This document shows, piece after piece, positions 2,872 to 47,227 of a stretch of 64,000 bases of DNA. The DNA comes from a virus, in the IMG/VR virus record IMGVR_UViG_3300031950_000001, positions 62,001 through 126,000 of that record; one strand, written 5' to 3'. The translations under genes and the position numbers were made by a program. The notes under the pieces are model-generated. The model did not search any database and was not told the origin of the DNA. It was given only the letters and a program-made list of their open reading frames with translations. The number at the start of each line of letters is the position of its first letter. The first letter of the stretch is position 1.

Positions 2872-5496
2872 ATGAGTGCAAAGGCAGATCCTGAACAGCT
2901 TAGACAGATTCCGGCTCCGCAGCCACGACAGCATCAAACAGAGGCAGATATTGGCGGACCGCGCCCGGATCCGACGCATATAACGACAACAATGCCTATA
3001 ACCCAGGGCACGATTAAAGCCGGCAGGGTCGTAGGCATGTCGCCTTACTTGCAAGTTTATAAAGTTATTACTGGCGACGGGCTACCTGTTCTAGCCACGC
3101 CTTTACGTGTAGGCGGTCCAGGCCAATTCGGAACGGTTTCAACGCCGACGTATACTCCCGGCGATTATGTGTTGCTTCTTGTCCATCCCGGGTATCCGCA
3201 CGCCTTTATTGTCGGCGCCATGCCGCTTTCCCGCGTAGGTCCGGTTCCTGTTCCAGATAAGGTATCCCTTATCGGATGTGACTTTTATCATTCCGTCTGG
3301 GCTCCGGTAGCGACATTGTTGGGCTATCCGGACTTCTCAGGACGAACGTTTGCGGATGCCTGTGGACTCGAACAAGGTTTTACTGCAAATGGGATGGCGT
3401 TTACGATTGACCCGTTTTTAGCGCAGCTTCGTTACGACGAAGCAACGGGCCTGTTTGTTTTTGCAATGGACCGCACGGTCCGGATCAGCGGCAGGACATA
3501 TGAAGAGAGATCGGCAGCGCATGAGAAGACAGGATGGGCAGCATCCAATCTTATGTGTTTGTACGAAGGAGTTAATCTAAAGAGGCACGAACTACTTGGT
3601 TATTATTATACAGGGCTGGATCCACGCACGAGCAGGCCTACCGATGAGATTTGGGCTGCAGCAACGGATTGTGCGGATTATGGACAATTTCCTTTCCATC
3701 GTTTGCAGGAATATAAGGGCGCGCTTGGCTTCTTTAAGCGGACATTTCTAGTGGGCCTGCCGATCGAAAAGCTAGATGCTTATCATGCCTTTGAAGGCAA
3801 AAAAGACAGTCGCAGCAGTAGTAGCAGTAGCAGTGGTGATGATAACGGTAGTTCGAGCGGCGACGAGGAAAAAGAAATAGGCTATGTAGGGCTCTATGAC
3901 GAACAGTTGGGTATTGATGGCTATTATTGTGTTCGGTCGTCGGCCGGTTTCGGCTGGATAAAGACGCCCATTATTTCTGCGCCACGTCGGAAGAAGCGAA
4001 TAAATGATACCGGTCTTCAATTGAATGATCCTGTTCGTTCGTGGCCACACGACACACAGACAGGCAATTTTAAAGCCGTATCGTATGCCTTGACTACTTG
4101 GGATGTATTGCTTCATTCTTTTGTCTGGTTTGGATCGCAGAAGTTTATAAATGGAGATGACTTTGTCTGCGCTAATGAGAAAGATTATTTTGAAAAAGTC
4201 TATCAAAATCAGAGATGGGACCGTGTAATGAGTCTAAAAGGATTAGACGAGCTGCAAAGTGGCAAGTTTATGCCGCCGCCGGACAAAGCCGATCTTAATA
4301 TTTTGGGATTAAATGATGGTAAGGTTTTCAATAGCGTAGCCTACATCGCAATTCTTCCGGACGGGTCCATCACGATCGGTGATGGTTATGGCGGCGAAAT
4401 TGCGATGACCGGCGGCAAAATATTCATCGACGCGCCGGGCGGAGTATTCTTAAGATCGGGACGGGAAGTCTGTGTCCTTGCAGGAAGCGATTTTATTGCC
4501 ACGGCCGACCGAAGTATTGATATACAAGCCAAAAAAGATACACGGCTGGCAGCTAAACACAATCTTCATCTAGCCGGAGCTCTCGACGGTGGTGCTCATG
4601 GCGTGCTGATCGAGAGCCGAAGTACGGCTGATGATCCGAGTTGGTTTTTTAGTAACGACCCCGAAGCCTTGGGTGAGAACACGACCATCGGCGGTATTCG
4701 ATTGGTATGTCCGCAGCATGTAATAGCCGGTTATGCTGCGGGTGTACATATGGTTGCGCATGGATCGGGATATGGCGGAGGCGAAATCCGACTGGAAGCC
4801 TGCCGTCCCGCTCCAGGACAACCAAATGGTCATATTGTTCTGGTTGGAGATAGCGTCAATCATCATGTCGATTGTGCTGTTGTCTTTCGATATCCGGCCT
4901 ATCGGCAGGACGATGCAGATCCCACGGTTTATTTCGCGGCAAAAGATCATTTCATCGTTCCGGTTAAGCAAATTGGGACTGAAATCCAATGCAATCGCGT
5001 CGATCAATCCGGGTTTGATCAAGCCAGGTATAATGACGTAGTTACAACCGTTACAAGCACGATCTCTGCCCTGCATCCTAATAGTTTTGCAAACGACATA
5101 CCGACGACTTCGTACTGTTTCACCTTCAGGTCCGTCAATCAGATGTGTACAAAATGCATTGAGCTTATAAAGCCAAGATGGTATCGGCTTGCGTATCGGC
5201 TCGGCGAGACGTACGATAATATATTAAAAGAAAGTCACGCTCGAATTCGTCTGTTCGTACCAAAACCATGCGGGTCTTATCCTGGCTATGATCCAACCGG
5301 TCAAGCACGGCCAAAAGAGTATGATCAAGATAAGACCATTTTGGATGAGTACTATAATACGGCGGGACCTCCTCCAGAAATCATTGAGTCCCATGCGGAT
5401 ATACCTATTAGCATCAAACACGAGAACTCCATTGGCATCTATGGATTGCAGCCATGCTATCCGGACATGAGATGCGATCAGCCATCGTCCGGGTAA
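2872..5496 (+). CDS. tail spike / baseplate puncturing protein (gp5/VgrG-like)
   Basis: An 874-residue protein with RBS GGAAG before ATG 2872. Residues about 40-125 resemble an OB-fold (short strands, PGDYVLLLVHPG), the usual first domain of gp5/VgrG/Mu gpV spikes. A Ser-rich linker with Asp/Glu lies near residues 310-340. Residues about 500-570 contain short repeated beta strands with Gly turns (DGSITIGDG, GGKIFIDAP, GGVFLRSG), the pattern of the triple-stranded beta-helix that forms the spike shaft. It lies upstream of the hub-like gene at 7088, fitting assembly of the central baseplate. The long C-terminal part is not recognised and may add enzymatic or binding function. The stop codon runs into a palindromic element. 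Confidence 0.7.
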   Translation: MSAKADPEQLRQIPAPQPRQHQTEADIGGPRPDPTHITTTMPITQGTIKAGRVVGMSPYLQVYKVITGDGLPVLATPLRVGGPGQFGTVSTPTYTPGDYVLLLVHPGYPHAFIVGAMPLSRVGPVPVPDKVSLIGCDFYHSVWAPVATLLGYPDFSGRTFADACGLEQGFTANGMAFTIDPFLAQLRYDEATGLFVFAMDRTVRISGRTYEERSAAHEKTGWAASNLMCLYEGVNLKRHELLGYYYTGLDPRTSRPTDEIWAAATDCADYGQFPFHRLQEYKGALGFFKRTFLVGLPIEKLDAYHAFEGKKDSRSSSSSSSGDDNGSSSGDEEKEIGYVGLYDEQLGIDGYYCVRSSAGFGWIKTPIISAPRRKKRINDTGLQLNDPVRSWPHDTQTGNFKAVSYALTTWDVLLHSFVWFGSQKFINGDDFVCANEKDYFEKVYQNQRWDRVMSLKGLDELQSGKFMPPPDKADLNILGLNDGKVFNSVAYIAILPDGSITIGDGYGGEIAMTGGKIFIDAPGGVFLRSGREVCVLAGSDFIATADRSIDIQAKKDTRLAAKHNLHLAGALDGGAHGVLIESRSTADDPSWFFSNDPEALGENTTIGGIRLVCPQHVIAGYAAGVHMVAHGSGYGGGEIRLEACRPAPGQPNGHIVLVGDSVNHHVDCAVVFRYPAYRQDDADPTVYFAAKDHFIVPVKQIGTEIQCNRVDQSGFDQARYNDVVTTVTSTISALHPNSFANDIPTTSYCFTFRSVNQMCTKCIELIKPRWYRLAYRLGETYDNILKESHARIRLFVPKPCGSYPGYDPTGQARPKEYDQDKTILDEYYNTAGPPPEIIESHADIPISIKHENSIGIYGLQPCYPDMRCDQPSSG

Positions 5497-22766: not shown

Positions 22767-22798
22767 ACCAAACCTGCCTAAACCACGGCAGGTTTGGT
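22767..22798 (-). ncRNA. element right-end hairpin, probable 3' part of the TnpB guide RNA
   Basis: A perfect 12-bp inverted repeat (ACCAAACCTGCC with GGCAGGTTTGGT) around an 8-base loop, at the tnpB 3' end next to the element boundary. In IS607/IS605 elements this zone is transcribed as the omega RNA, whose guide reads into the flanking host sequence. Here the flank would be the protease gene. The 5' extent of the RNA is not visible. Confidence 0.5.
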
Positions 22799-24004
22799 AG
22801 GCTGCCTTTCTTCAGCCAATTTTGACGCTTCATCCAGAACTGCCCCGAAGGGTCTTACGTCCTGTCCACGTCCGTTTAGAGAGTCCGTGAACCCACTCCG
22901 GCCTCTGTTGATCAAACGTAACGCTTCCCGCTCAATGTTCCGAGCGGCGTTCAAATCCCTATCAGCGGTATACCCGCACTCACAAACAAACGTTCGGTCA
23001 CTCAGTGCCAAGTCTGATTTGACTACACCACACATTGGGCATAGCCGACTAGAGGGGAAGAAGCGGTCAACTTTTACCAATACGCCGCCGTACCACTCGG
23101 ATTTGTATCGTAACTGTCGTACAATCTCGCCAAGCCCAGCATCGGAGATTAGCAGGGCCATGCGGTGGTTACGCAGCATTCCGGCGACATTCAAATCTTC
23201 CACGCCGATAATCCGATAGGTGCGGGCGATCTCGGTCGTCATCTTGTGCAGATAATCCAACCGCTTGTTGGCTATCCGACGATGTAGCGTCGCCAACTTC
23301 TTCTTGGTGCGGTTCCAGCGACCGCTTCCCTCTTGTCGGCGGGATAGTTCGCGGCTCAGACGCTTTAACTTTCTCAGTCTTGAGCGTAGCAGCACTTGGT
23401 TCTCGTACCGCTTGCCATCTGAGAGAACAGCCAAAGTCCTGACGCCCACGTCTATCCCGACTGCCCCTTGTGGGTGCTTGTGTTCTGGTGGTTCGATTTC
23501 TACATTGACAGCAGCATACCAATGCCCTGCGTTCTCCGAAATAGTAACTGACTTGATTTCACCGTTAAACCTCAACACCTCGGCCATATTGATTGGTTTA
23601 TCTAACTTTTCCAACTTGAGCCAATGGCCGTCAATACGAACCCGTGTCCCGTCCATTCTGAAGGATAATTTGGATCGTTTCTTGGACTTGAACCTGGGAT
23701 AGCCCTTCTTAGTATCGCCATTCTTGCACCGGCGAAAGAACCTCGTGAATGCGTCATCAAGATTCCGAAAGCCAGTTTCTACAGCGCATTTAGAAACGTC
23801 CAGGGCCCAGGGGAACTGCTTGCGCTTGATGGCGTTGAATTGCCTTTTCAAGGTATAAGCTGATGGTTTCCTGCCAGCGGCATATTCTTTCTGCCACTCG
23901 GCCAAACCCCAATTGAAGGCAAATCTTGCCGTTCCGCAAGCCTTGCGCAGGTACTCGGTCTGTTGAGGCGTGGGATTAAGTCTGATTTTATGTGCTCGCT
24001 GCAT
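22778..24004 (-). CDS. tnpB: TnpB RNA-guided nuclease (IS607-associated)
   Basis: A 408-residue protein starting at the ATG whose first base is 24004 (MQRAHKIRL), overlapping the end of tnpA; 13 upstream in-frame codons are less likely. It has the N-terminal helix-turn-helix-like segment, RuvC motif I GIDVGVRTLA, motif II GVEDLNV, a zinc ribbon CPMC...CECG and motif III ADRDLNAARNI. All three catalytic acidic residues and four Cys are present, so it looks active. TnpB cuts DNA that matches the element's guide and so promotes element retention after excision. The C-terminus after motif III is Arg/Gly-rich and encoded across the right-end hairpin. Confidence 0.9.
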   Translation of the reverse strand: MQRAHKIRLNPTPQQTEYLRKACGTARFAFNWGLAEWQKEYAAGRKPSAYTLKRQFNAIKRKQFPWALDVSKCAVETGFRNLDDAFTRFFRRCKNGDTKKGYPRFKSKKRSKLSFRMDGTRVRIDGHWLKLEKLDKPINMAEVLRFNGEIKSVTISENAGHWYAAVNVEIEPPEHKHPQGAVGIDVGVRTLAVLSDGKRYENQVLLRSRLRKLKRLSRELSRRQEGSGRWNRTKKKLATLHRRIANKRLDYLHKMTTEIARTYRIIGVEDLNVAGMLRNHRMALLISDAGLGEIVRQLRYKSEWYGGVLVKVDRFFPSSRLCPMCGVVKSDLALSDRTFVCECGYTADRDLNAARNIEREALRLINRGRSGFTDSLNGRGQDVRPFGAVLDEASKLAEERQPTKPAVV

Positions 24005-24599
24005 CGGAGCTTTCCTTCTGCCTGCGCCCGCCTCGTGCTCCATATAACCGAGACGAAAAACTTACAATGATCGTCAGAATATCCTCAATCAACTCTTCGT
24101 GCTCGTTCTTCTCTTCCGCTTCTTCCAGAACTTCTACTCTGCAACCTACGCCATTGAAGAATCGCTCAATGGTTCGGAAACCAAAGCGGGTCAATCTATC
24201 TCGATGTTCAACTACAACCTTTTTGATTTTACCTTTGCAAGCCGCGTCTATGATCTTGAAGAACTGGCGGCGATTGTCGTTTAGACCAGAAGCAATCTCG
24301 GAACAGTCTAACACAATGCGATAACCGCGCTCCCTACAGGCTTCTATCAGCCTTTCATGCTGGCGGGTAAGATTCTCTACTTGCTTTTGTGTAGATACAC
24401 GAGCATACAAGGCTACGTCCTTCTCGGTTACAGTAACACCATCCGATATAGACAGGAGCTTTTCAATCTCGGCACTATCATAGCGACGATGCCCGCCAGC
24501 AGTACGGTGTTCAGTCAGCTTTCCATCCCTGAGCCACCGATGCAAGGTGGTCTTGGAGAGCCGATACTTCTGCTCGACTTCCGATTGCCTCAACAACAT
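23988..24599 (-). CDS. tnpA: IS607 TnpA serine recombinase
   Basis: A 203-residue protein with a MerR-like helix-turn-helix at the N-terminus (LSKTTLHRWLRDGKL, then AGGHRRY) and a small serine-recombinase domain beginning ALYARVST, where the Ser is the nucleophile. Conserved Arg residues follow in EHRDRLTRFG. This fused order (HTH first, catalytic domain second) is specific to IS607-type transposases. It overlaps tnpB by 17 bases. The reading frame is intact. Confidence 0.9.
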   Translation of the reverse strand: MLLRQSEVEQKYRLSKTTLHRWLRDGKLTEHRTAGGHRRYDSAEIEKLLSISDGVTVTEKDVALYARVSTQKQVENLTRQHERLIEACRERGYRIVLDCSEIASGLNDNRRQFFKIIDAACKGKIKKVVVEHRDRLTRFGFRTIERFFNGVGCRVEVLEEAEEKNEHEELIEDILTIIVSFSSRLYGARGGRRQKESSDAAST

Positions 24600-35057: not shown

Positions 35058-37964
35058 GTGTTTGACGTCCTAAGGACTTGCGCACCAGAAGACCTCATGA
35101 ATCTTGCTACGACGAGGTCAAGACTAACCGGGGAGCGGCTAGAGGACGCTCTCCTAGGTCTATGCTACGATTTCATTCAATCTAAAGGCAATCACTCGAT
35201 TTCGATTCGATACAAGACCGCGTCGTACCATTTCCCAGTGTTAGGCGGGCATTTGTGGAATGGCCGTCCCGGCAGGTCGGATATTGTCATTATTGGTAAA
35301 AATCCAGGCTCGACCGAAATGGCGTTCGGCTGTAATTTCGTCGGCCCTAGCGGCGAAGTCCTTCGCGAAGCTCTTAAGGAGCTAGGATTTACCGACGATC
35401 AGTTTAAGTCGATCTATGTTACGAACGTTATCAAGTGGTACCCGAAGTCCATTCCAAATAACGCCTTTCCGGCAAATTGGATGGAAGTTGGTCGATTCAT
35501 TTTAGCTCTGGAGCTCATTCAGATAAAACCGAAGATCATCCTTTTATTAGGTACGGATGCCGTTAAAGCCGTTCTCGGCTCAAAATACACGCTGAAGGGC
35601 TGCCTTCATAAAGAACTACGACGGAAAATCACAGATACGCACGAAGCGAGGGTCTTTGTCGCTACCCATCCTGCAGCGATAGCCCGGAATCGGGAGCTAT
35701 TTAAGCTTTTCGTGTCCGAGCTCGCCGATTTCGCAGGAGCCATTCTGAATAGGCAATTTCCGACTCGGAATAGCCAAATTAAGATCGACGTTATTCGCCG
35801 AGCCGAAGACCTGCAAAAGCTTGTCAATGAGATTAAGCAAACGCCTGGTCTGATAAAGCTTGCCGTAGACCTCGAATGGGAAGGCCAATTCCCGGTTAAT
35901 AAAGGTGCCTACGTCAGGACCATTCAGCTTTCGCATCGACCCGACTATGCCGTCGTTATCCTACTTCATGACGTAGACGGCAAGCCCTGTTTTCAGCCTT
36001 CTGTCGAGGCTGCAACAGAGCTTTTGAAGGAAATCTTCTCGTTACCGAATCTTCAGATCGGAGGTGCCAATATCGCAGCGGACTATCCTTGGCTGAAATC
36101 CCTTGGGATCGATATTCTCGAACCACGAGGAACGATCCCTGAAGACGCAACCGGACCAGACTATCCGGGGATTTTTGACGTCGCATTGGCGGAGCATTCG
36201 TATAACGAGAATGCTCGATATGATCTGGAAAGTCTGGCCGTTTCGCGTTGCGGTTTTAAGCCGTGGTCCGAAGAGCTTGAAAAATGGAAACGGAAACGCT
36301 GCAATGAATTGAACATTACCGAAAAGCAGCTCTCCGGGTACGGCGCATGCCCGGATCATATTCTTATCCCCTATGCCGCAACGGACGCTGCGGCAACGCG
36401 AAGTCTTATGGATGTTTATTCTGCGGTTTTAGAGACCGGCGATCCTGCAACCGGAAATGATGTCTTTCAAGTTTTCAAGGTATCAATGAAAGGGCTTGCC
36501 GCCGTCATGCATATGCATGATGTCGGCGTTAAGGTCAATAAAAACCAAATTGATAAACTCACGCTTTCGTACATGGAAGTGCTCCATGAGCGGCTTGAGG
36601 AATTTCGCGCAAAAATCAATTGGCCAGACTTCAATCCCCGTAGCTACTATCATGTAACGGAATTCCTGTTTGGCGACGCGTTGACCCGAAAGGTTGATGC
36701 GGAGGGCCGGCGCATTCGCGTACGGCCTACTGGAGCGCTGACGCTCAACTTAACGCCGATCAAAACCACGAACAAAAAATCGTGGTCTGGAAGTCCCATC
36801 GAAAATCCGAGTACGGATAAAGAGGTTTGCGGTATTTTGGCCCTTCAGCATCCGCTGGCAGGCGAGCTTCGGGACATTAAATTCATTGATCACGTCCTTA
36901 AAAGCGTCCTACGGCTTCCCAAACGCGACGGGGACAAGTTTATTACCGATGAAGATGGCAATCTAGACTATGATGAAGGGATTGCCTCATTCATATGCGA
37001 CGATGGACGGATTCATGGCATGTTCTCGATCCTCGCCGAAACCGGTCGGCTCCGAAGTTCCCGACCCAATCTGCAAAATATGGCCAAAAGCCGCGAAAGC
37101 GCTTATGAGGCCATTGCCAAAGATAAATATCCTGGTCCTATCCGTAGCATTTTTACGGCGGAACCCGGCTATCTGCTTATTGAAGCAGATTTCAAAGTAG
37201 CCGAGGTCTTCTGTCTCGCCGTAATGTCCCAAGATCCGCTACTTTTAGAGCATTGTATGCGGGCAACGCTGCCCGAAAGCGATCCCAATTATTACGATAT
37301 CCACTCCAATGTAGCCGTAAACGCCTTCCATCTCGACTGTGCGCCGACGAAGAAAGCCCTTGCTGCGATTGGTAAAGCCCACCTAAGAGTGGGGGCTAAA
37401 GCCGTACTCTTTGGAGGGATGTATGGCCGTGGCGCCGACGCCATTGCCAGACAGTGCCAACAGGAGGGAGTCCATCTTACCGTCGAGGACGCCGAAAAGA
37501 TCATGAATGCGATCTTTTCGACCTATAAAGATGCGGCGCACTATCTGGAAACCTTAGAGGCGAGGGTTGACAGCCCTGGCTGGATTAGGACATACTTTGG
37601 TCGGATTCGGCATTTCTTCCCCTCTGCCGATCCGGCAGAACAAGGGCATCAGAGACGGCAAGCTCGCAATTTTGTTATGCAATCCACCGTGGCGGACGCC
37701 ATGAATCTGACTCTGTATGCCCTATATTGTAATCAGGCTCGTAAGCAATTAGGATATAGGATCGTGCTGCAGATGCACGATGCGTTTTTGTTGGAGGTAC
37801 CCGAAAAGTATGTCGACGTTGTTGCGAAGGAGATCATTCCAAAGTGTGTCGAAAGCGTTCGCTTTCGACCGTGCACTCCCGATGGAGAGCCATATGGATC
37901 TTACTATCATTTCTGTCCAGAGGTTGATGTCTATGAACAATGGGGCGTTCCTTTGAAGCGTTGA
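35058..37964 (+). CDS. polA: family A DNA polymerase with N-terminal uracil-glycosylase-like domain
   Basis: A 968-residue protein starting at GTG 35058. Residues about 70-235 match family 4-like uracil-DNA glycosylases (GKNPGSTE, FVGPSGEV, TNVIKWYP, LLLGTDA and THPAA). About 265-430 is a 3'-5' exonuclease with AVDLEWEG as first acidic pair and a DxxYAATDAA-like end. The polymerase part has RLRSSRPNLQN near 665, ADFKVAEV near 710 (a catalytic Asp), GGMYGRGADA near 790, and QMHDAFLLE near 905 (the second catalytic Asp). SPO1-type phage polymerases share this fused order. A uracil-sensing or uracil-removing role is suggested by the fold; activity cannot be read from the sequence. Confidence 0.9.
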   Translation: MFDVLRTCAPEDLMNLATTRSRLTGERLEDALLGLCYDFIQSKGNHSISIRYKTASYHFPVLGGHLWNGRPGRSDIVIIGKNPGSTEMAFGCNFVGPSGEVLREALKELGFTDDQFKSIYVTNVIKWYPKSIPNNAFPANWMEVGRFILALELIQIKPKIILLLGTDAVKAVLGSKYTLKGCLHKELRRKITDTHEARVFVATHPAAIARNRELFKLFVSELADFAGAILNRQFPTRNSQIKIDVIRRAEDLQKLVNEIKQTPGLIKLAVDLEWEGQFPVNKGAYVRTIQLSHRPDYAVVILLHDVDGKPCFQPSVEAATELLKEIFSLPNLQIGGANIAADYPWLKSLGIDILEPRGTIPEDATGPDYPGIFDVALAEHSYNENARYDLESLAVSRCGFKPWSEELEKWKRKRCNELNITEKQLSGYGACPDHILIPYAATDAAATRSLMDVYSAVLETGDPATGNDVFQVFKVSMKGLAAVMHMHDVGVKVNKNQIDKLTLSYMEVLHERLEEFRAKINWPDFNPRSYYHVTEFLFGDALTRKVDAEGRRIRVRPTGALTLNLTPIKTTNKKSWSGSPIENPSTDKEVCGILALQHPLAGELRDIKFIDHVLKSVLRLPKRDGDKFITDEDGNLDYDEGIASFICDDGRIHGMFSILAETGRLRSSRPNLQNMAKSRESAYEAIAKDKYPGPIRSIFTAEPGYLLIEADFKVAEVFCLAVMSQDPLLLEHCMRATLPESDPNYYDIHSNVAVNAFHLDCAPTKKALAAIGKAHLRVGAKAVLFGGMYGRGADAIARQCQQEGVHLTVEDAEKIMNAIFSTYKDAAHYLETLEARVDSPGWIRTYFGRIRHFFPSADPAEQGHQRRQARNFVMQSTVADAMNLTLYALYCNQARKQLGYRIVLQMHDAFLLEVPEKYVDVVAKEIIPKCVESVRFRPCTPDGEPYGSYYHFCPEVDVYEQWGVPLKR

Positions 37965-39339: not shown

Positions 39340-40596
39340 ATGGGTCGCCCTATGGACGATAGTCTCGAAAGCGCCTTAAAGGTGCTTCAAAGCAAGCTTT
39401 CGCGGGAGTCCAAGATGGTCAGCAATAGCCCGACATTAATGGTGGGCTTGCCTGTTCCATCTCTGGCGATTCGATATCTATTGCAAAATACAGGGCTACC
39501 GTTGGGCGTTGTTTACCATCTTGTCGGTCCGCCCGCATCATTTAAATCCACGCTTGCGGTGGAGATTGCCAGATGGCATCATGCTTGCGGCGGTGCTGTC
39601 ATTATTTGCGAAGCCGAGACAAAACCGACGCCTGTTCTTCGAGAAAGCATTCTAGGCAAAGACCCGCCCCGGGTCCTTGTCCATGAATGCCTATTTCTTG
39701 AAGAATGGCAAAAGGTTATCCTCGAAGCCGTCAAAATCATGCAAGATAGACAAGGCGACACTCAAAAACCGGTCGCCTTTATCGTCGATAGCTATATGGG
39801 TAAATTGCCTCGCAAGCTTTATGACGACGTTTTGCGGCAAGGATTTGCCCAACGTCATTTTGGCGAGGCAGCTATGCTTATCGGCGACTGGTTAAGTGCC
39901 TATACCTCCACCGTGCAGGGATATCCCTATAACCTAATAGGGGTAAATCATCTTAAAGAGTCCGTTCATCCCATTACCGGGATGCCTGTCTATCGCACTC
40001 CGGGTGGTCAGTATTTGCGGCATCAAAACTCGATTGAAATCCGAGTAAACCGCAGCAAAACGGAGCAGCGGAAGGCAGGTGATCTGGTCTACTATGAGAC
40101 GCTCATTCAGCTTTATACGTCAAAAAACTGTCGCGGTGCGCAGGACAAGAAGATCGCCGTCGTTTTGCGCCAATGGAACGAAGTTGTCGATGATAAGCCT
40201 ACGCTTATCAGCAATTTTGAGTGGTGGGAAGCCGCCACCTGGATGCTCTACGACGGAACAGGAATGCCAAAAACAGACTGCGAAATCCTGCTTCCGAAAG
40301 TAAAGAAGGTCATTGACGTCAAAAAGCGTTCGCGAGGCGATCTCTTCTACTGCGAGCAGTTAGGAATTCCTCAATCGGATCCGATTCCGGCACATGAAAT
40401 GGGCCTTAAGATCGAGGAGCGTGAAGACATCCTTCACGAGCTCTACAAAATATTCGGCATTAACGTTATGGATCTCTATAACGCCGAGCAGCCGCTACTG
40501 AAGAGATCCGTAACTACGGGCGACGACTATGACAGTCCGATGGAGACGATGAAAGAGGGTATCCCTGACCTTAGTTTTGAAGGGGACGAGGTGTGA
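39340..40596 (+). CDS. RecA/UvsX-like recombinase
   Basis: A 418-residue RecA-fold ATPase. ATG 39340 with TTGGAGGAG upstream is the true start; the longer frame only reads through the palindrome. Walker A is GPPASFKST near residue 63, Walker B AFIVDSY near 148, and the DNA-binding loop region follows LIGVNHLKES near 204. The Walker A has Phe-Lys-Ser-Thr where bacterial RecA has Gly-Lys-Thr-Thr, as in UvsX-like phage proteins. It pairs homologous strands using ends made by the SbcCD-like nuclease. It overlaps the next GTG. Confidence 0.85.
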   Translation: MGRPMDDSLESALKVLQSKLSRESKMVSNSPTLMVGLPVPSLAIRYLLQNTGLPLGVVYHLVGPPASFKSTLAVEIARWHHACGGAVIICEAETKPTPVLRESILGKDPPRVLVHECLFLEEWQKVILEAVKIMQDRQGDTQKPVAFIVDSYMGKLPRKLYDDVLRQGFAQRHFGEAAMLIGDWLSAYTSTVQGYPYNLIGVNHLKESVHPITGMPVYRTPGGQYLRHQNSIEIRVNRSKTEQRKAGDLVYYETLIQLYTSKNCRGAQDKKIAVVLRQWNEVVDDKPTLISNFEWWEAATWMLYDGTGMPKTDCEILLPKVKKVIDVKKRSRGDLFYCEQLGIPQSDPIPAHEMGLKIEEREDILHELYKIFGINVMDLYNAEQPLLKRSVTTGDDYDSPMETMKEGIPDLSFEGDEV

Positions 40597-41834
40597 GCGG
40601 TCAAACTCCTTTTTGGTCGTTTGTCGAAACGTTATTGGAAATTGACCCTGAAACGACAATTGTGGACGCAAGACAGTCCGTTGTCGGCCAGATTCCAATC
40701 GGGAAACCGGTTAGGATCGAAAAGGCCCGTCCGGACACACACTATAATTTCCTTATTGTCGACGGCAAAGGACTTCAGAAGTGCAAGTCCGAAATTGCCA
40801 GCTTAACGTTCGATAATTTGGTCGTTCTTTCCGAAGGGACAAAGAACGATGAAGCGTTGAATTTTATGACATTTGTGGATGCTCATTTCGAGTCGGTTCC
40901 CGATATTTCGATGTATCTACCCGATTGTACCATTGAAAAGAACTGTCCCTATAAATGGTTGTTTGCGTGTCGAATTACGGCGAAGAAGGAGGAAGCTATG
41001 TCTTTGGAACCTGAAACTGTGCCGGTTAGTCAGCCAAATCTCGAAGACAGCTCGAACGAGCTTATGCCGAGTCCATCCGGCGATGCGGTCGTAGACCACA
41101 CTATTGAGGGGTTTGGGGCCGTAAATCTCGACGGGCTGTACGACTTTGAGAAGCCAATTGTTTCTCAGATATGCGAACATATCAATGAGCATGTAAAACG
41201 AACGTTAGAGTGGTATTGGAAACTGGGAAAACTGGTGTATAAGCTAAAGCGCGAAGAGGATAAACATAATTGTTCGTTTCACGAGCGACTCGAAGTCTTA
41301 CGACAGATGCTCGATAATCGTACGATCCGGACGCTTTTAAACGCAAAAATGATTTATGAACGATGGTCGAATCTGGAAGAGTTCAAGAAGGTCATTAGCT
41401 ATAACGAAAGCCCTGAACGTCAAGGTATGCTGAGCTTTCGTCATTTACTTGCTCTTGCCCGGATCGACGATGACGAGAAAGTCGATGAGCTTGCCCAGGC
41501 TGTCGTCACTAAAGGAATTGCCGCGCAGGAGCTGGAAGCGATACTGATAGGTAAAACAGGCAAGCGTCGCGGTCCGGGTCGAGGTGTTAATGTTCCTGAA
41601 TCCATCGAGGAAAGGCTATATAAATTAAATAGACATGCAGCCGCGTTTCGCAAAGTTCTCGAGGCGCTTTATGCGGGCGGAAAGTTTGCTTCTGATTTAG
41701 AACAATTGAACGTCGACGATGAAATAGAGCTCGTAATAGTGAATGCAATAGATGCGTTAGAAGATATATCGTCAATGGCGCAGGTTCTACTGCAGACGTT
41801 TGATAAAATGACCCGTAGTAAAGATCGAGATTAA
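40593..41834 (+). CDS. unknown two-domain protein downstream of recombinase
   Basis: A 413-residue protein starting at GTG 40593 in the overlap with the recombinase stop. Residues 1-125 form an alpha/beta domain (FLIVDGKGLQKCKSE, DNLVVLSEG), with an acidic Ser/Pro linker near 130-170. The rest is helical (about 185-410), including a coiled-coil-like segment and the block MLSFRHLLALARI(D)DDEKVDELAQ, which recalls helical domains of ParB/RepB-like proteins. The function cannot be assigned; coupling to the RecA-like gene suggests recombination mediator or DNA segregation roles. Confidence 0.5.
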   Translation: MSGQTPFWSFVETLLEIDPETTIVDARQSVVGQIPIGKPVRIEKARPDTHYNFLIVDGKGLQKCKSEIASLTFDNLVVLSEGTKNDEALNFMTFVDAHFESVPDISMYLPDCTIEKNCPYKWLFACRITAKKEEAMSLEPETVPVSQPNLEDSSNELMPSPSGDAVVDHTIEGFGAVNLDGLYDFEKPIVSQICEHINEHVKRTLEWYWKLGKLVYKLKREEDKHNCSFHERLEVLRQMLDNRTIRTLLNAKMIYERWSNLEEFKKVISYNESPERQGMLSFRHLLALARIDDDEKVDELAQAVVTKGIAAQELEAILIGKTGKRRGPGRGVNVPESIEERLYKLNRHAAAFRKVLEALYAGGKFASDLEQLNVDDEIELVIVNAIDALEDISSMAQVLLQTFDKMTRSKDRD

Positions 41835-41858
41835 AAATTCGCATCCGGGATTTTTCTT

Positions 41859-41888
41859 GGCCTGAAGGACGTCAGGCCGCATTTTTTA
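41859..41888 (+). terminator. intrinsic terminator
   Basis: GGCCTGA/TCAGGCC stem, 6-base loop, then GCATTTTTT. It ends the recombinase operon. Confidence 0.85.
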
Positions 41889-41910
41889 ATCCGAAAATTC
41901 CTGCCCGCCC

Positions 41911-41983: not shown

Positions 41984-42428
41984 CCGGGGACCTGGCGGTC
42001 GCCGGGGACTAGAAGCGTCTCAAAAATGAGACATTTCTAGATGACAATCGGAAATAGCGTCTGTTCGGCAGGCGCGCATTTCAAGAAGGTTTTAGCCAGA
42101 CGCATTGTCGTCTATGGCCGAAAGAATATTCGACCGACGACCGCCAAATTGTAGCCAGCAGCATAACGGCCGTTGGCAGATTAGTTGTATCGGCCCATCA
42201 GATCGCCCGCGCCAGTGTGCTAGGCGAACATTTATCGTGTTTAACTATGGGCGGCGAATGGCTAAAAAGGAGATTAAAACTATCGGTAGGGTTCAGAACG
42301 AACCTTTACCCTGCCGACAGTATTCTACGGGCCCGCAGGAAGCCCGATTACGCTATTTTGCGACTGTTATTCTAGAAATATCTCATTTTTGAGGCGCTTC
42401 TAGTCCCCGGCGACCGCCAGGTCCCCGG
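41984..42428 (+). ncRNA. 445-nt element closed by a long inverted repeat, candidate structured RNA
   Basis: The ends 41984-42041 and 42371-42428 are complementary over 58 bases with two mismatches (one a G-U pair), and pairing continues imperfectly to about 42060 and 42350. Inside are further stems: GCGTCTG/CAGACGC (42057/42097), CGCCC/GGGCG (42204/42249), a compound hairpin at 42280-42320 with G-U pairs, and CGGGC/GCCCG at 42328-42346. The only long + frame (95 codons from 42105) has no ribosome site and an unlikely composition. A terminator precedes it and the gene at 42464 follows closely. It could be a large phage RNA of unknown class or a miniature inverted-repeat element. Confidence 0.6.
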
Positions 42429-42463
42429 GGTCGGGGGCGCTTAGCTATTAAAGGTCGGGAAAA

Positions 42464-43204
42464 ATGGTTGGTAAATTCGCTGTCGATGGGCGTCGGCGTC
42501 CTTATCCTCCGCTGAAAGTAATTAAGCGTTTGGCCGATAAAATCTACAGCAATCTTCTCTTGTTTGCGGATAAGCCGATTCAGCAGGAGGAGATCGTCAA
42601 AATCGGCCAGCGGCTGATCGAGATTTTTAAGCCGCCCGATGAGAAAACGCTCTTTGACTGTCTCATACCTATTTATAATCAGACACTAAACAAATACGAA
42701 ATCGAGCGGTTCGCTTGGCGATTGGCGGCTAATGCTCGGCGAATCCGGAATTCGATTCCGGTGTCTTTTTGGTTTGGTCAGACAAAAGAAGAGCCGGCAA
42801 TTTGTCAGTTTATTGCCCCAGAGGAAGAAGGCGATGTTAGGCAAGGTTTTATGCGGTACTGTGTACTTACAGGTCCCGCAGCTACCATTACCGGACGTAT
42901 CTTTATCAACAGTTCTCGAAGATATCGTATTTATCGTGCAAGCAGCGTGAACGATCATCTGCGTCTTCGCTATCTATCGGCGGCAACATTTACGTGCCTT
43001 CTCATTCCGTCGCGAGCATCCTATCCGATGATCGATCCTTGGACTATCGGATGTACGAACAAACTTACCGCGCGTAACAAAAAACTTTTCGATCTCTGGT
43101 TACAAGCACGACGGGAACGGGTCGAAATAAAAGCTAGAAATGCCTATTATGTTCCGGTTATATTAAAGGATGGTTATACAAAAGACCTCGTAATTTCTTT
43201 TTAG
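42464..43204 (+). CDS. unknown basic phage protein
   Basis: A 246-residue protein with only a weak ribosome site (GGGAA) before ATG 42464, 35 bases after the large inverted repeat, so that element may control it. The sequence is basic, with helical N-terminal half (EIERFAWRLAANARRIRNSIP) and a beta-rich second half including RYRIYRASSVNDHLRLRYLS. No motif recognised. It starts a four-gene group with weakly conserved, possibly regulatory proteins. Confidence 0.55.
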   Translation: MVGKFAVDGRRRPYPPLKVIKRLADKIYSNLLLFADKPIQQEEIVKIGQRLIEIFKPPDEKTLFDCLIPIYNQTLNKYEIERFAWRLAANARRIRNSIPVSFWFGQTKEEPAICQFIAPEEEGDVRQGFMRYCVLTGPAATITGRIFINSSRRYRIYRASSVNDHLRLRYLSAATFTCLLIPSRASYPMIDPWTIGCTNKLTARNKKLFDLWLQARRERVEIKARNAYYVPVILKDGYTKDLVISF

Positions 43205-45451: not shown

Positions 45452-47227
45452 ATGGCTTCCGACGTCGTTAAATCCGATTCCGTTCCACAAGCTGCGGTCG
45501 CCGTCGATCCCAAGGAAATTCTCGAAAAGCTTGCCAAAACGGTTCAAGCCAACGACAACACCAGCGCGCTTCTTCCGGTTCTTTTCTCGTTAAACGGCGA
45601 ACCGCTTCGGCTGGAAGATCATTTTGTTTTCAAGCCGCTTTTTAACCTCCACCAGCCGATGGAAACGGTTCTGATGTGCGGTCGTCAAGTAGGGAAAACT
45701 ACCAATATCGCGGTTCAGAGCCTTCTATTAGCCGCCAGCCTTCCCTACTTTACGGTTACCGTGGTCTTCCCTCGGGAAATTCATGCCGCCCGATTCAGTA
45801 CCCTTTATCTTAGCCCGCTTCTCCGCTCATCAGTTATAAGCGATATTTTGATGGGCAAGGATAGCGTGGATCAGGTGTTCCAGAAAGACTTTACGAACGG
45901 ATCCCATATCATCCTGACCTATGCTTACGATAATCCCGATCGAACACGTGGTATTGCGGCAACACGGCTATTGTGTGACGAAACACAAGATATGCTCCTT
46001 ACGTCTATTGAAATCATTAAAGAGACGCTTTCTCATGCCAAATTTGGCGTACAGGCCCTTTATGCCGGAACTCCGAAAACGACAAGCAACACCTTAGCCA
46101 CCCTCTGGTACCGAAGCAGCCAAGCGGAATGGTTTATACGTTGTACCCATTGTACGACAAACGGTAAACCGACTTGGAACATTCCCTCGCCGGATCATCA
46201 TTTAGAGAAGCTTCTGGGACCCGTCCATGAGAAAATTTCCGAAAGATACCCTGCCTTACTGTGTCATAAATGCCGACAACCGATTTCGCCGCGAAACGGG
46301 CAATGGGTCCATCGATATCGAGATAGGATCCCCGATTTTACGGGGTATCACGTCCCCCAAATTCTTCTTCCGCATCATTATGCCAACCCTAGAAACTGGG
46401 CAACGCTTCTAAAGAAGACGAACGGTCCAACATACATCTTCTACAACGAGGTCATGGGGTGGCCATATGATGCTGCAGCCGCCATTGTAAGCGAGCAAGA
46501 TTTGATCCGTGCCTCTACATTAGGGGAAAATAAAGATGAACTTGCGGTCCAAGAGGCTAAAAAATATACGGTTACGGCTCTTGGTGTAGACTGGGGCGGC
46601 GGCGGGGAGGATATGACGAGCTTTACCACCCTTGCGCTTGTAGGCCTCTGTCCGGACGGCAAATTGCACGTCATTTGGGGGAAAAGGCTTCTTACGCCAA
46701 ACGATCATCTTCGTGAGGCCGCCGAAATCTGCCGGTATTGCTGTTACTTTAACCCTACTTTTCTGGCCCACGACTACGGCGGAGGAGGTACGGTTCGTGA
46801 GACAATCCTTGTAAATGCCGGCTTTCCGGACCACAAAATCGTCCCCATGTTATATGCGGGAACGAGCATGGCGGCCGTTTATAAGGTTAAAGAGCCGAAC
46901 GAGCTTAACCCTCGTTCTTACATCCTCATTAATAAAACAAAGACCATTCAGATACTTTGTGCGCTTATCAAACTTGGCCAGATTAGATTTTTTGCTTATA
47001 ACAGGCAGAATCCGCAGGAATGCTTAACGGCCGATTTTCTGAATTTGAAAGAAGAGCGTACCGTTTCTCTCGTCCGCGAGCGCTATCATATCTCTAAGCA
47101 AACCGGCTCTATCGACGATTTCGTTCACGCCGTCAACTATGCGTGCATTGCCATATGGCTAAATACGCGCTGGCCCGATATGGCAAATGCCGTGGCTGAA
47201 TACGCGTCGGAGCAACTCGTCGAATAA
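45452..47227 (+). CDS. terL: terminase large subunit
   Basis: A 591-residue protein. ATPase motifs: Walker A CGRQVGKTT near residue 76, Walker B LLCDETQD near 173 and the coupling motif AGTPKTT near 208. A zinc-binding insertion with CTHC (near 230) and CHKC (near 270) separates ATPase and nuclease. The RNase H-like nuclease starts GVDWGGGGED near 377, followed by AHDYGGGG near 445 and a C-terminal DDFVHAVNY Asp. It packages DNA into the head. No small terminase was recognised nearby, and the ATG lacks a clear ribosome site. Confidence 0.9.
   Translation: MASDVVKSDSVPQAAVAVDPKEILEKLAKTVQANDNTSALLPVLFSLNGEPLRLEDHFVFKPLFNLHQPMETVLMCGRQVGKTTNIAVQSLLLAASLPYFTVTVVFPREIHAARFSTLYLSPLLRSSVISDILMGKDSVDQVFQKDFTNGSHIILTYAYDNPDRTRGIAATRLLCDETQDMLLTSIEIIKETLSHAKFGVQALYAGTPKTTSNTLATLWYRSSQAEWFIRCTHCTTNGKPTWNIPSPDHHLEKLLGPVHEKISERYPALLCHKCRQPISPRNGQWVHRYRDRIPDFTGYHVPQILLPHHYANPRNWATLLKKTNGPTYIFYNEVMGWPYDAAAAIVSEQDLIRASTLGENKDELAVQEAKKYTVTALGVDWGGGGEDMTSFTTLALVGLCPDGKLHVIWGKRLLTPNDHLREAAEICRYCCYFNPTFLAHDYGGGGTVRETILVNAGFPDHKIVPMLYAGTSMAAVYKVKEPNELNPRSYILINKTKTIQILCALIKLGQIRFFAYNRQNPQECLTADFLNLKEERTVSLVRERYHISKQTGSIDDFVHAVNYACIAIWLNTRWPDMANAVAEYASEQLVE

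What the first reader, a model, noticed from the sequence alone, without database searches (positions are those of the whole stretch)
41984..42428. 445-nt element closed by a long inverted repeat, with internal stems
Arms of about 78 bases (58 bases with two mismatches, one a G-U pair, then weaker pairing) enclose some 290 bases with several further stems, and there is no credible gene inside. Mismatches include G-U pairs, suggesting selection on RNA pairing. Size and architecture (long closing helix plus multi-stem interior, in a phage intergenic gap after a terminator) recall large phage RNAs of unknown function, but I cannot assign it to a known class. A miniature inverted-repeat transposon is the main alternative.
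Basis: partly seen in the sequence, partly recalled or inferred. Interest (0 to 1): 0.78.

Follow-up and report, generated by a model that had tools for sequence, protein, structure and literature searches.

The report
Phage element clamped by long stem
A 445-base stretch between two gene blocks of an uncultured phage is closed by a nearly perfect 58-base-pair stem; a related phage has rewritten almost half of the aligned outer stem, yet every altered base is matched by its partner, so the stem is kept by selection or by copying and is not a stray transposon, though its job is unknown.

Summary
The element is real. Arms at 41984-42041 and 42371-42428 are 58 nt and 97% complementary. It is a single copy in a 144-kb phage record, in a 629-nt gap between a replication-type gene block and the block that leads to the large terminase. 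It matches no Rfam family. A close relative (98%) carries it unchanged apart from four interior bases. A diverged relative (IMGVR 3300020153_000001, neighbouring proteins 41-82% identical) has, in the same gap, a 387-nt element with 52-53-nt arms of different sequence. In the 32 outer pairs, 15 differ, all 15 are changed on both sides to another Watson-Crick pair, and none is broken. The interior is weakly but significantly similar and shows no coding. No comparable inverted repeat occurs in 78 other terminase-anchored phage loci (1.17 Mb). A transposon is therefore unlikely. I favour a large noncoding RNA whose ends are clamped by a long duplex. But G-U pairs are strikingly rare in the arms, so DNA-level homogenisation or a DNA function is a live rival, and the transcribed strand is unresolved: structural similarity of the interiors exceeds controls only on the minus strand. 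It resembles ROOL/GOLLD/PLE-IIR in kind but belongs to none tested.

The parts
41858..41889 (+). intrinsic-terminator-like hairpin GGCCTGAAGGACGTCAGGCC + T-run closing the upstream gene block; hairpin also present in the diverged relative
   Evidence: pattern GCCTGAAG..TCAGGC occurs once in each genome, at this locus
41984..42041 (.). left (5' on + strand) arm of the closing inverted repeat
42371..42428 (.). right arm of the closing inverted repeat
42042..42060 (.). weaker inward continuation of the stem, left side (5 pairs on +, about 16 on -)
42350..42370 (.). weaker inward continuation of the stem, right side
42090..42267 (.). largest interior domain, closed by TTTTAGCCA/TGGCTAAAA (mean pair probability 0.92 on +, 0.96 on -)
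42279..42321 (.). interior hairpin with GGTAGGGTTCAG...; the relative has GGTGGGTTCAGGCCCACC at the aligned place
42328..42346 (.). small interior hairpin CGGGC...GCCCG; a similar GGGC...GCCC hairpin in the relative
42439..42458 (.). 20-nt block GCTTAGCTATTAAAGGTCGG identical in the diverged relative, between element and downstream start codon: ribosome-binding/leader on +, or promoter-like TTTAAT just outside the element on - (inference)
40593..41834 (+). upstream gene, 413 aa, weak DUF1016_N / ParB-HTH similarity below curated cut-offs
42464..43204 (+). downstream gene, 246 aa, no known family, 53% identical in the diverged relative
45452..47227 (+). terminase large subunit, later gene of the same downstream block

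Best explanation
A vertically inherited phage locus that makes a large (about 390-450 nt) noncoding structured RNA whose two ends are clamped by an unusually long, nearly perfect duplex (53-58 bp). SHOWN: the inverted repeat, its fixed genomic position in three phages, complementary change of the arms, homology of the interior, no coding, no Rfam match. INFERRED: that it is transcribed; that the duplex works at RNA level, either as a double-strand-specific (RNase III-type) processing site that frees the core or as a clamp that protects and orients it; and that it acts at the boundary between the replication block and the packaging/late block, as leader of the downstream operon if read on + or as a separate RNA if read on -. 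The strand is not resolved.
For: The same gap in a relative whose flanking proteins are 41-82% identical holds an element with 52-53-nt arms; 15 of 32 outer pairs changed on both sides, 0 one-sided, 0 broken. Interiors are homologous in the same orientation (z about 3.6, 0 of 400 shuffles) but not as protein. Minus-strand interiors share structure beyond controls (z 2.5, 0 of 120 shuffles and 0 of 41 rotations). The interior folds better than simple shuffles on + in both phages (z -3.4, -3.0). No iterons, no AT-rich unwinding region, no GC-skew change expected of an origin. Arms unchanged between the two close phages.
Against: G-U pairs are nearly absent (0 of 64 in the outer helix of the two phages, 3 of 111 in all), odd for an RNA helix. 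On the + strand, the one expected from gene context, interior structural similarity does not exceed controls. No terminator directly after the element on either strand and no sigma-70 promoter match. Only two independent lineages. No expression data.
Confidence: 0.5

Rival explanations
1. A DNA-level inverted repeat: the arms act as (or bind protein as) a DNA structure in replication, segregation or packaging, or are simply kept identical by template switching between arms during replication.
For: All 15 changed outer pairs are Watson-Crick and none is at a G-U intermediate; template switching is known to homogenise inverted-repeat arms (PMC8604942); each arm contains a small dyad at the same offset in both phages (GTCTCAAAAATGAGAC; TGTTGT..ACAACA) (sequence); the upstream gene has weak ParB-HTH similarity and terminase lies 3 kb downstream.
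Against: No iterons, no AT-rich stretch, no skew change; the dyads do not recur elsewhere in their genomes except as weak matches; interior similarity and minus-strand fold similarity are not needed by this model; spacer inversion, a usual companion of arm template switching, is not seen.
Confidence: 0.3
2. A miniature inverted-repeat transposon (or a domesticated remnant of one).
For: Size and terminal inverted repeats fit; PLE IIR RNAs have been suggested to come from MITEs (PMC7567579).
Against: Single copy in both genomes, same site in three phages, no target duplication visible, arms differ between phages but match within each; no hit in phage records or elsewhere in viral contigs.
Confidence: 0.07
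3. An invertible switch: recombination between the arms flips the 329-bp interior, which would carry a promoter.
For: Length resembles invertible promoter segments (own knowledge); arms are long enough for recombination; the window also encodes a serine recombinase.
Against: The recombinase belongs to an IS607-type unit with TnpB 18 kb away; no tyrosine recombinase; all three copies have the interior in the same orientation.
Confidence: 0.05

Closest known systems
PLE inter-inverted-repeat (IIR) transcript of Vibrio cholerae phage satellites (PMC7567579)
   Same: noncoding region between inverted repeats in a phage-related genome
   Different: the PLE RNA has antisense matches to leaders of its own genes; none found here above shuffles; PLE origin iterons (PMC8263062) have no counterpart here
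ROOL and GOLLD RNAs (PMC12286853)
   Same: large, phage-encoded, structured, function unknown
   Different: no covariance-model match; shorter (387-445 nt against about 660 and over 800); not beside tRNAs; dominated by one very long closing helix
ICP1 abundant ~800-nt noncoding transcript (PMC7567579)
   Same: ORF-less gap at a gene-block boundary of a lytic phage
miniature inverted-repeat transposons
   Same: size and terminal inverted repeats
   Different: single copy, fixed locus, arms co-diverge between phages

Membership tests
ROOL / GOLLD / HEARO / any Rfam class | covariance-model match | tested here: not met
   no match at gathering score in the window, nothing credible at E up to 5 for this element or the relative's
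ROOL / GOLLD | phage-encoded, often near tRNA genes | tested here: not met
   phage yes; no tRNA in the window, the only one ARAGORN finds in the record is about 30 kb away
ROOL / GOLLD | homo-oligomeric cage | not testable with these tools
   needs cryo-EM
MITE | multiple copies at varied sites | tested here: not met
   single copy in the record and same locus in relatives
MITE | target-site duplication | tested here: not met
   flanks TTTATT | GGTCGG do not match (read)
PLE-IIR-like antisense regulator | complementarity to leaders of own genes | tested here: not met
   matches no better than shuffles
IR-closed structured noncoding RNA | pairing conserved through compensatory change | tested here: met
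   15 of 32 outer pairs changed on both sides, none broken; DNA homogenisation not excluded
IR-closed structured noncoding RNA | conserved interior fold | tested here: inconclusive
   minus strand above controls, plus strand not; only two lineages
IR-closed structured noncoding RNA | transcribed | not testable with these tools
   no expression data
replication origin | iterons, AT-rich region or skew change | tested here: not met
retron / DGR RNA | adjacent reverse transcriptase | tested here: not met
   the record's only RVT_1 hit is at G000:128228-128815, about 24 kb away

The most novel reading that the evidence does not exclude
A new family of phage RNAs defined by an exceptionally long, almost purely Watson-Crick double-stranded clamp (over 50 bp) around a structured core, possibly read antisense to the late operon, with the clamp selected as dsRNA (for processing, protection, or interaction with host double-strand RNA enzymes).
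Probability: 0.3. Interest if true: 0.72.

Novelty: new variant of a known kind. Interest (0 to 1): 0.52.

Why it matters
Large phage noncoding RNAs are few and their functions unknown. This locus has a clear boundary, a fixed position at the replication/late junction, and natural rewritten versions of its stem, so the question whether pairing, strand or core matters can be tested directly by swapping arms. It also shows a case where two-sided change alone does not prove RNA structure.

Tried and rejected
Rfam at curated and loose thresholds. DNA pattern and similarity searches in phage records, viral contigs and the window's own record. Distant relatives by terminase profile: 80 loci, of which the 78 other than the two known relatives have no similar repeat and none of the neighbouring genes. 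RecA-like and terminase searches of bacterial genomes: nothing. Coding of the interior. Antisense to phage leaders. Origin features. Spacer inversion. RNAalifold on the sequence alignment of interiors: not significant (9 of 100 controls as good). AlphaFold models of the two flanking proteins: too poor to use. A second 48-nt inverted repeat at G000:127460-127712 proved to be part of a separate retron-like RNA array, not a second copy.

Full report
OBSERVATION. The reported arms are at 41984-42041 and 42371-42428 (58 nt, 97% complementary, 329 nt between), extending to 77-79 nt at 91%. The element folds far better than dinucleotide shuffles (z -15.4). It is single-copy in its 144,055-base record, of which the window is 62001-126000. 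It has no Rfam match. It sits in a 629-nt gap after a terminator-like hairpin (41858), between a replication-type block (DNA polymerase, RecA/UvsX-like protein, a protein with weak DUF1016/ParB-HTH similarity) and a block with dATP/dGTP diphosphohydrolase and terminase.

RELATIVES. Contig 3300026509_000147 carries the same element with four interior differences and none in the arms. Contig 3300020153_000001 (135 kb) is broadly collinear (114 ortholog pairs on the gene strand; RecA-like, ParB-like, 246-aa and terminase neighbours 80, 41, 53 and 80% identical). Its corresponding 523-nt gap holds a 387-nt element with 52-53-nt arms. The two elements share position, architecture and a 20-nt block (42439-42458) before the next start codon, but the arms differ strongly.

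COVARIATION. Aligned without gaps from the shared ATTCC, the outer 32 pairs show 17 unchanged, 15 changed on both sides, 0 changed on one side, 0 broken. Independent drift of the two arms cannot give this. Either pairing is selected or one arm is repeatedly copied from the other (template switching is known to homogenise inverted repeats; PMC8604942). The lack of G-U pairs favours a Watson-Crick-strict process.

INTERIOR. The interiors are homologous in direct orientation (z about 3.6; inverted z about -0.3), have no shared reading frame, and fold moderately better than simple shuffles on the + strand in both phages. With only two lineages this is suggestive only. It would fit a - strand RNA that starts near the conserved block, which reads CCGACCTTTAATAGCTAAGC on that strand; the same block can equally be the leader and ribosome site of the downstream gene. 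Strand: cannot tell.

ALTERNATIVES. A transposon is disfavoured by fixed site, single copy and arms that change together between phages. Among the 78 further terminase-anchored loci (1.17 Mb) no comparable inverted repeat was found, so the element is not a generic feature of such phages, and the two syntenic occurrences are not chance. Origin signatures are missing. An invertible switch lacks any inverted copy; the only recombinase found is part of an IS607-type unit. Antisense matches to phage leaders are absent.

VERDICT. A real, conserved, unassigned phage element. Best reading: a large noncoding RNA with a long double-stranded clamp (0.5); main rival: a DNA-level inverted repeat (0.3). Closest in form: the PLE IIR transcript (PMC7567579); closest in kind: ROOL and GOLLD (PMC12286853), of which it is not a member by the tests run.

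Noticed in passing
L020:2080-3090 and 3120-4070 (G000:127080-128090 and 128120-129070), about 1-3 kb beyond the window's end: Five tandem ~165-200-nt RNA-like units, most closed by ACAAGACGGCCGTTGT...ACAACGGCCGTCTTGT with a T-run after the helix (one has a different interior), lie directly upstream of a retron-type reverse transcriptase (PADLOC retron models, PDB retron RTs). Retrons as I know them carry one such RNA; five in tandem looks unusual. The relative G001 also has an RT (98951-99574, minus) with one 23-bp-arm inverted repeat (100109-100270) beside it.
   Followed up: partly
window 5499, 9019, 17499, 22336, 26339, 32239, 34942, 39304, 47312, 47368, 51476, 57758 (34 copies in G000): Dispersed perfect palindrome TTTGATTCCGGAATCAAA, several copies just before genes; the relative has 30 copies of TTTGACTCCGGAGTCAAA instead, so essentially every copy changed together at symmetric positions, as if tracking a DNA-binding protein.
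   Followed up: partly
G000, e.g. window 17481, 42441, 43201: TTAGCTA is strand-biased (19 on +, 2 on -) and mostly follows terminator T-runs as TTTTTTAGCTA; TAGCTA gives a stop codon on both strands.
   Followed up: partly
window 22778-24599, minus strand: IS607-type insertion: MerR/serine recombinase plus TnpB (OrfB_IS605, Cas12f1-like domain) in the phage.
   Followed up: no
window 35058-37964: DNA polymerase A fused to an N-terminal uracil-DNA-glycosylase domain.
   Followed up: no
L108:13530-13890 (relative G001): The relative phage encodes a predicted tmRNA (tag AEQPLAIAA) and several tRNAs.
   Followed up: no
42017-42032 and L009:4163-4180: Each arm contains its own small dyad at the same offset in both phages though the sequences differ; could be chance, an operator, or an alternative hairpin.
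   Followed up: partly
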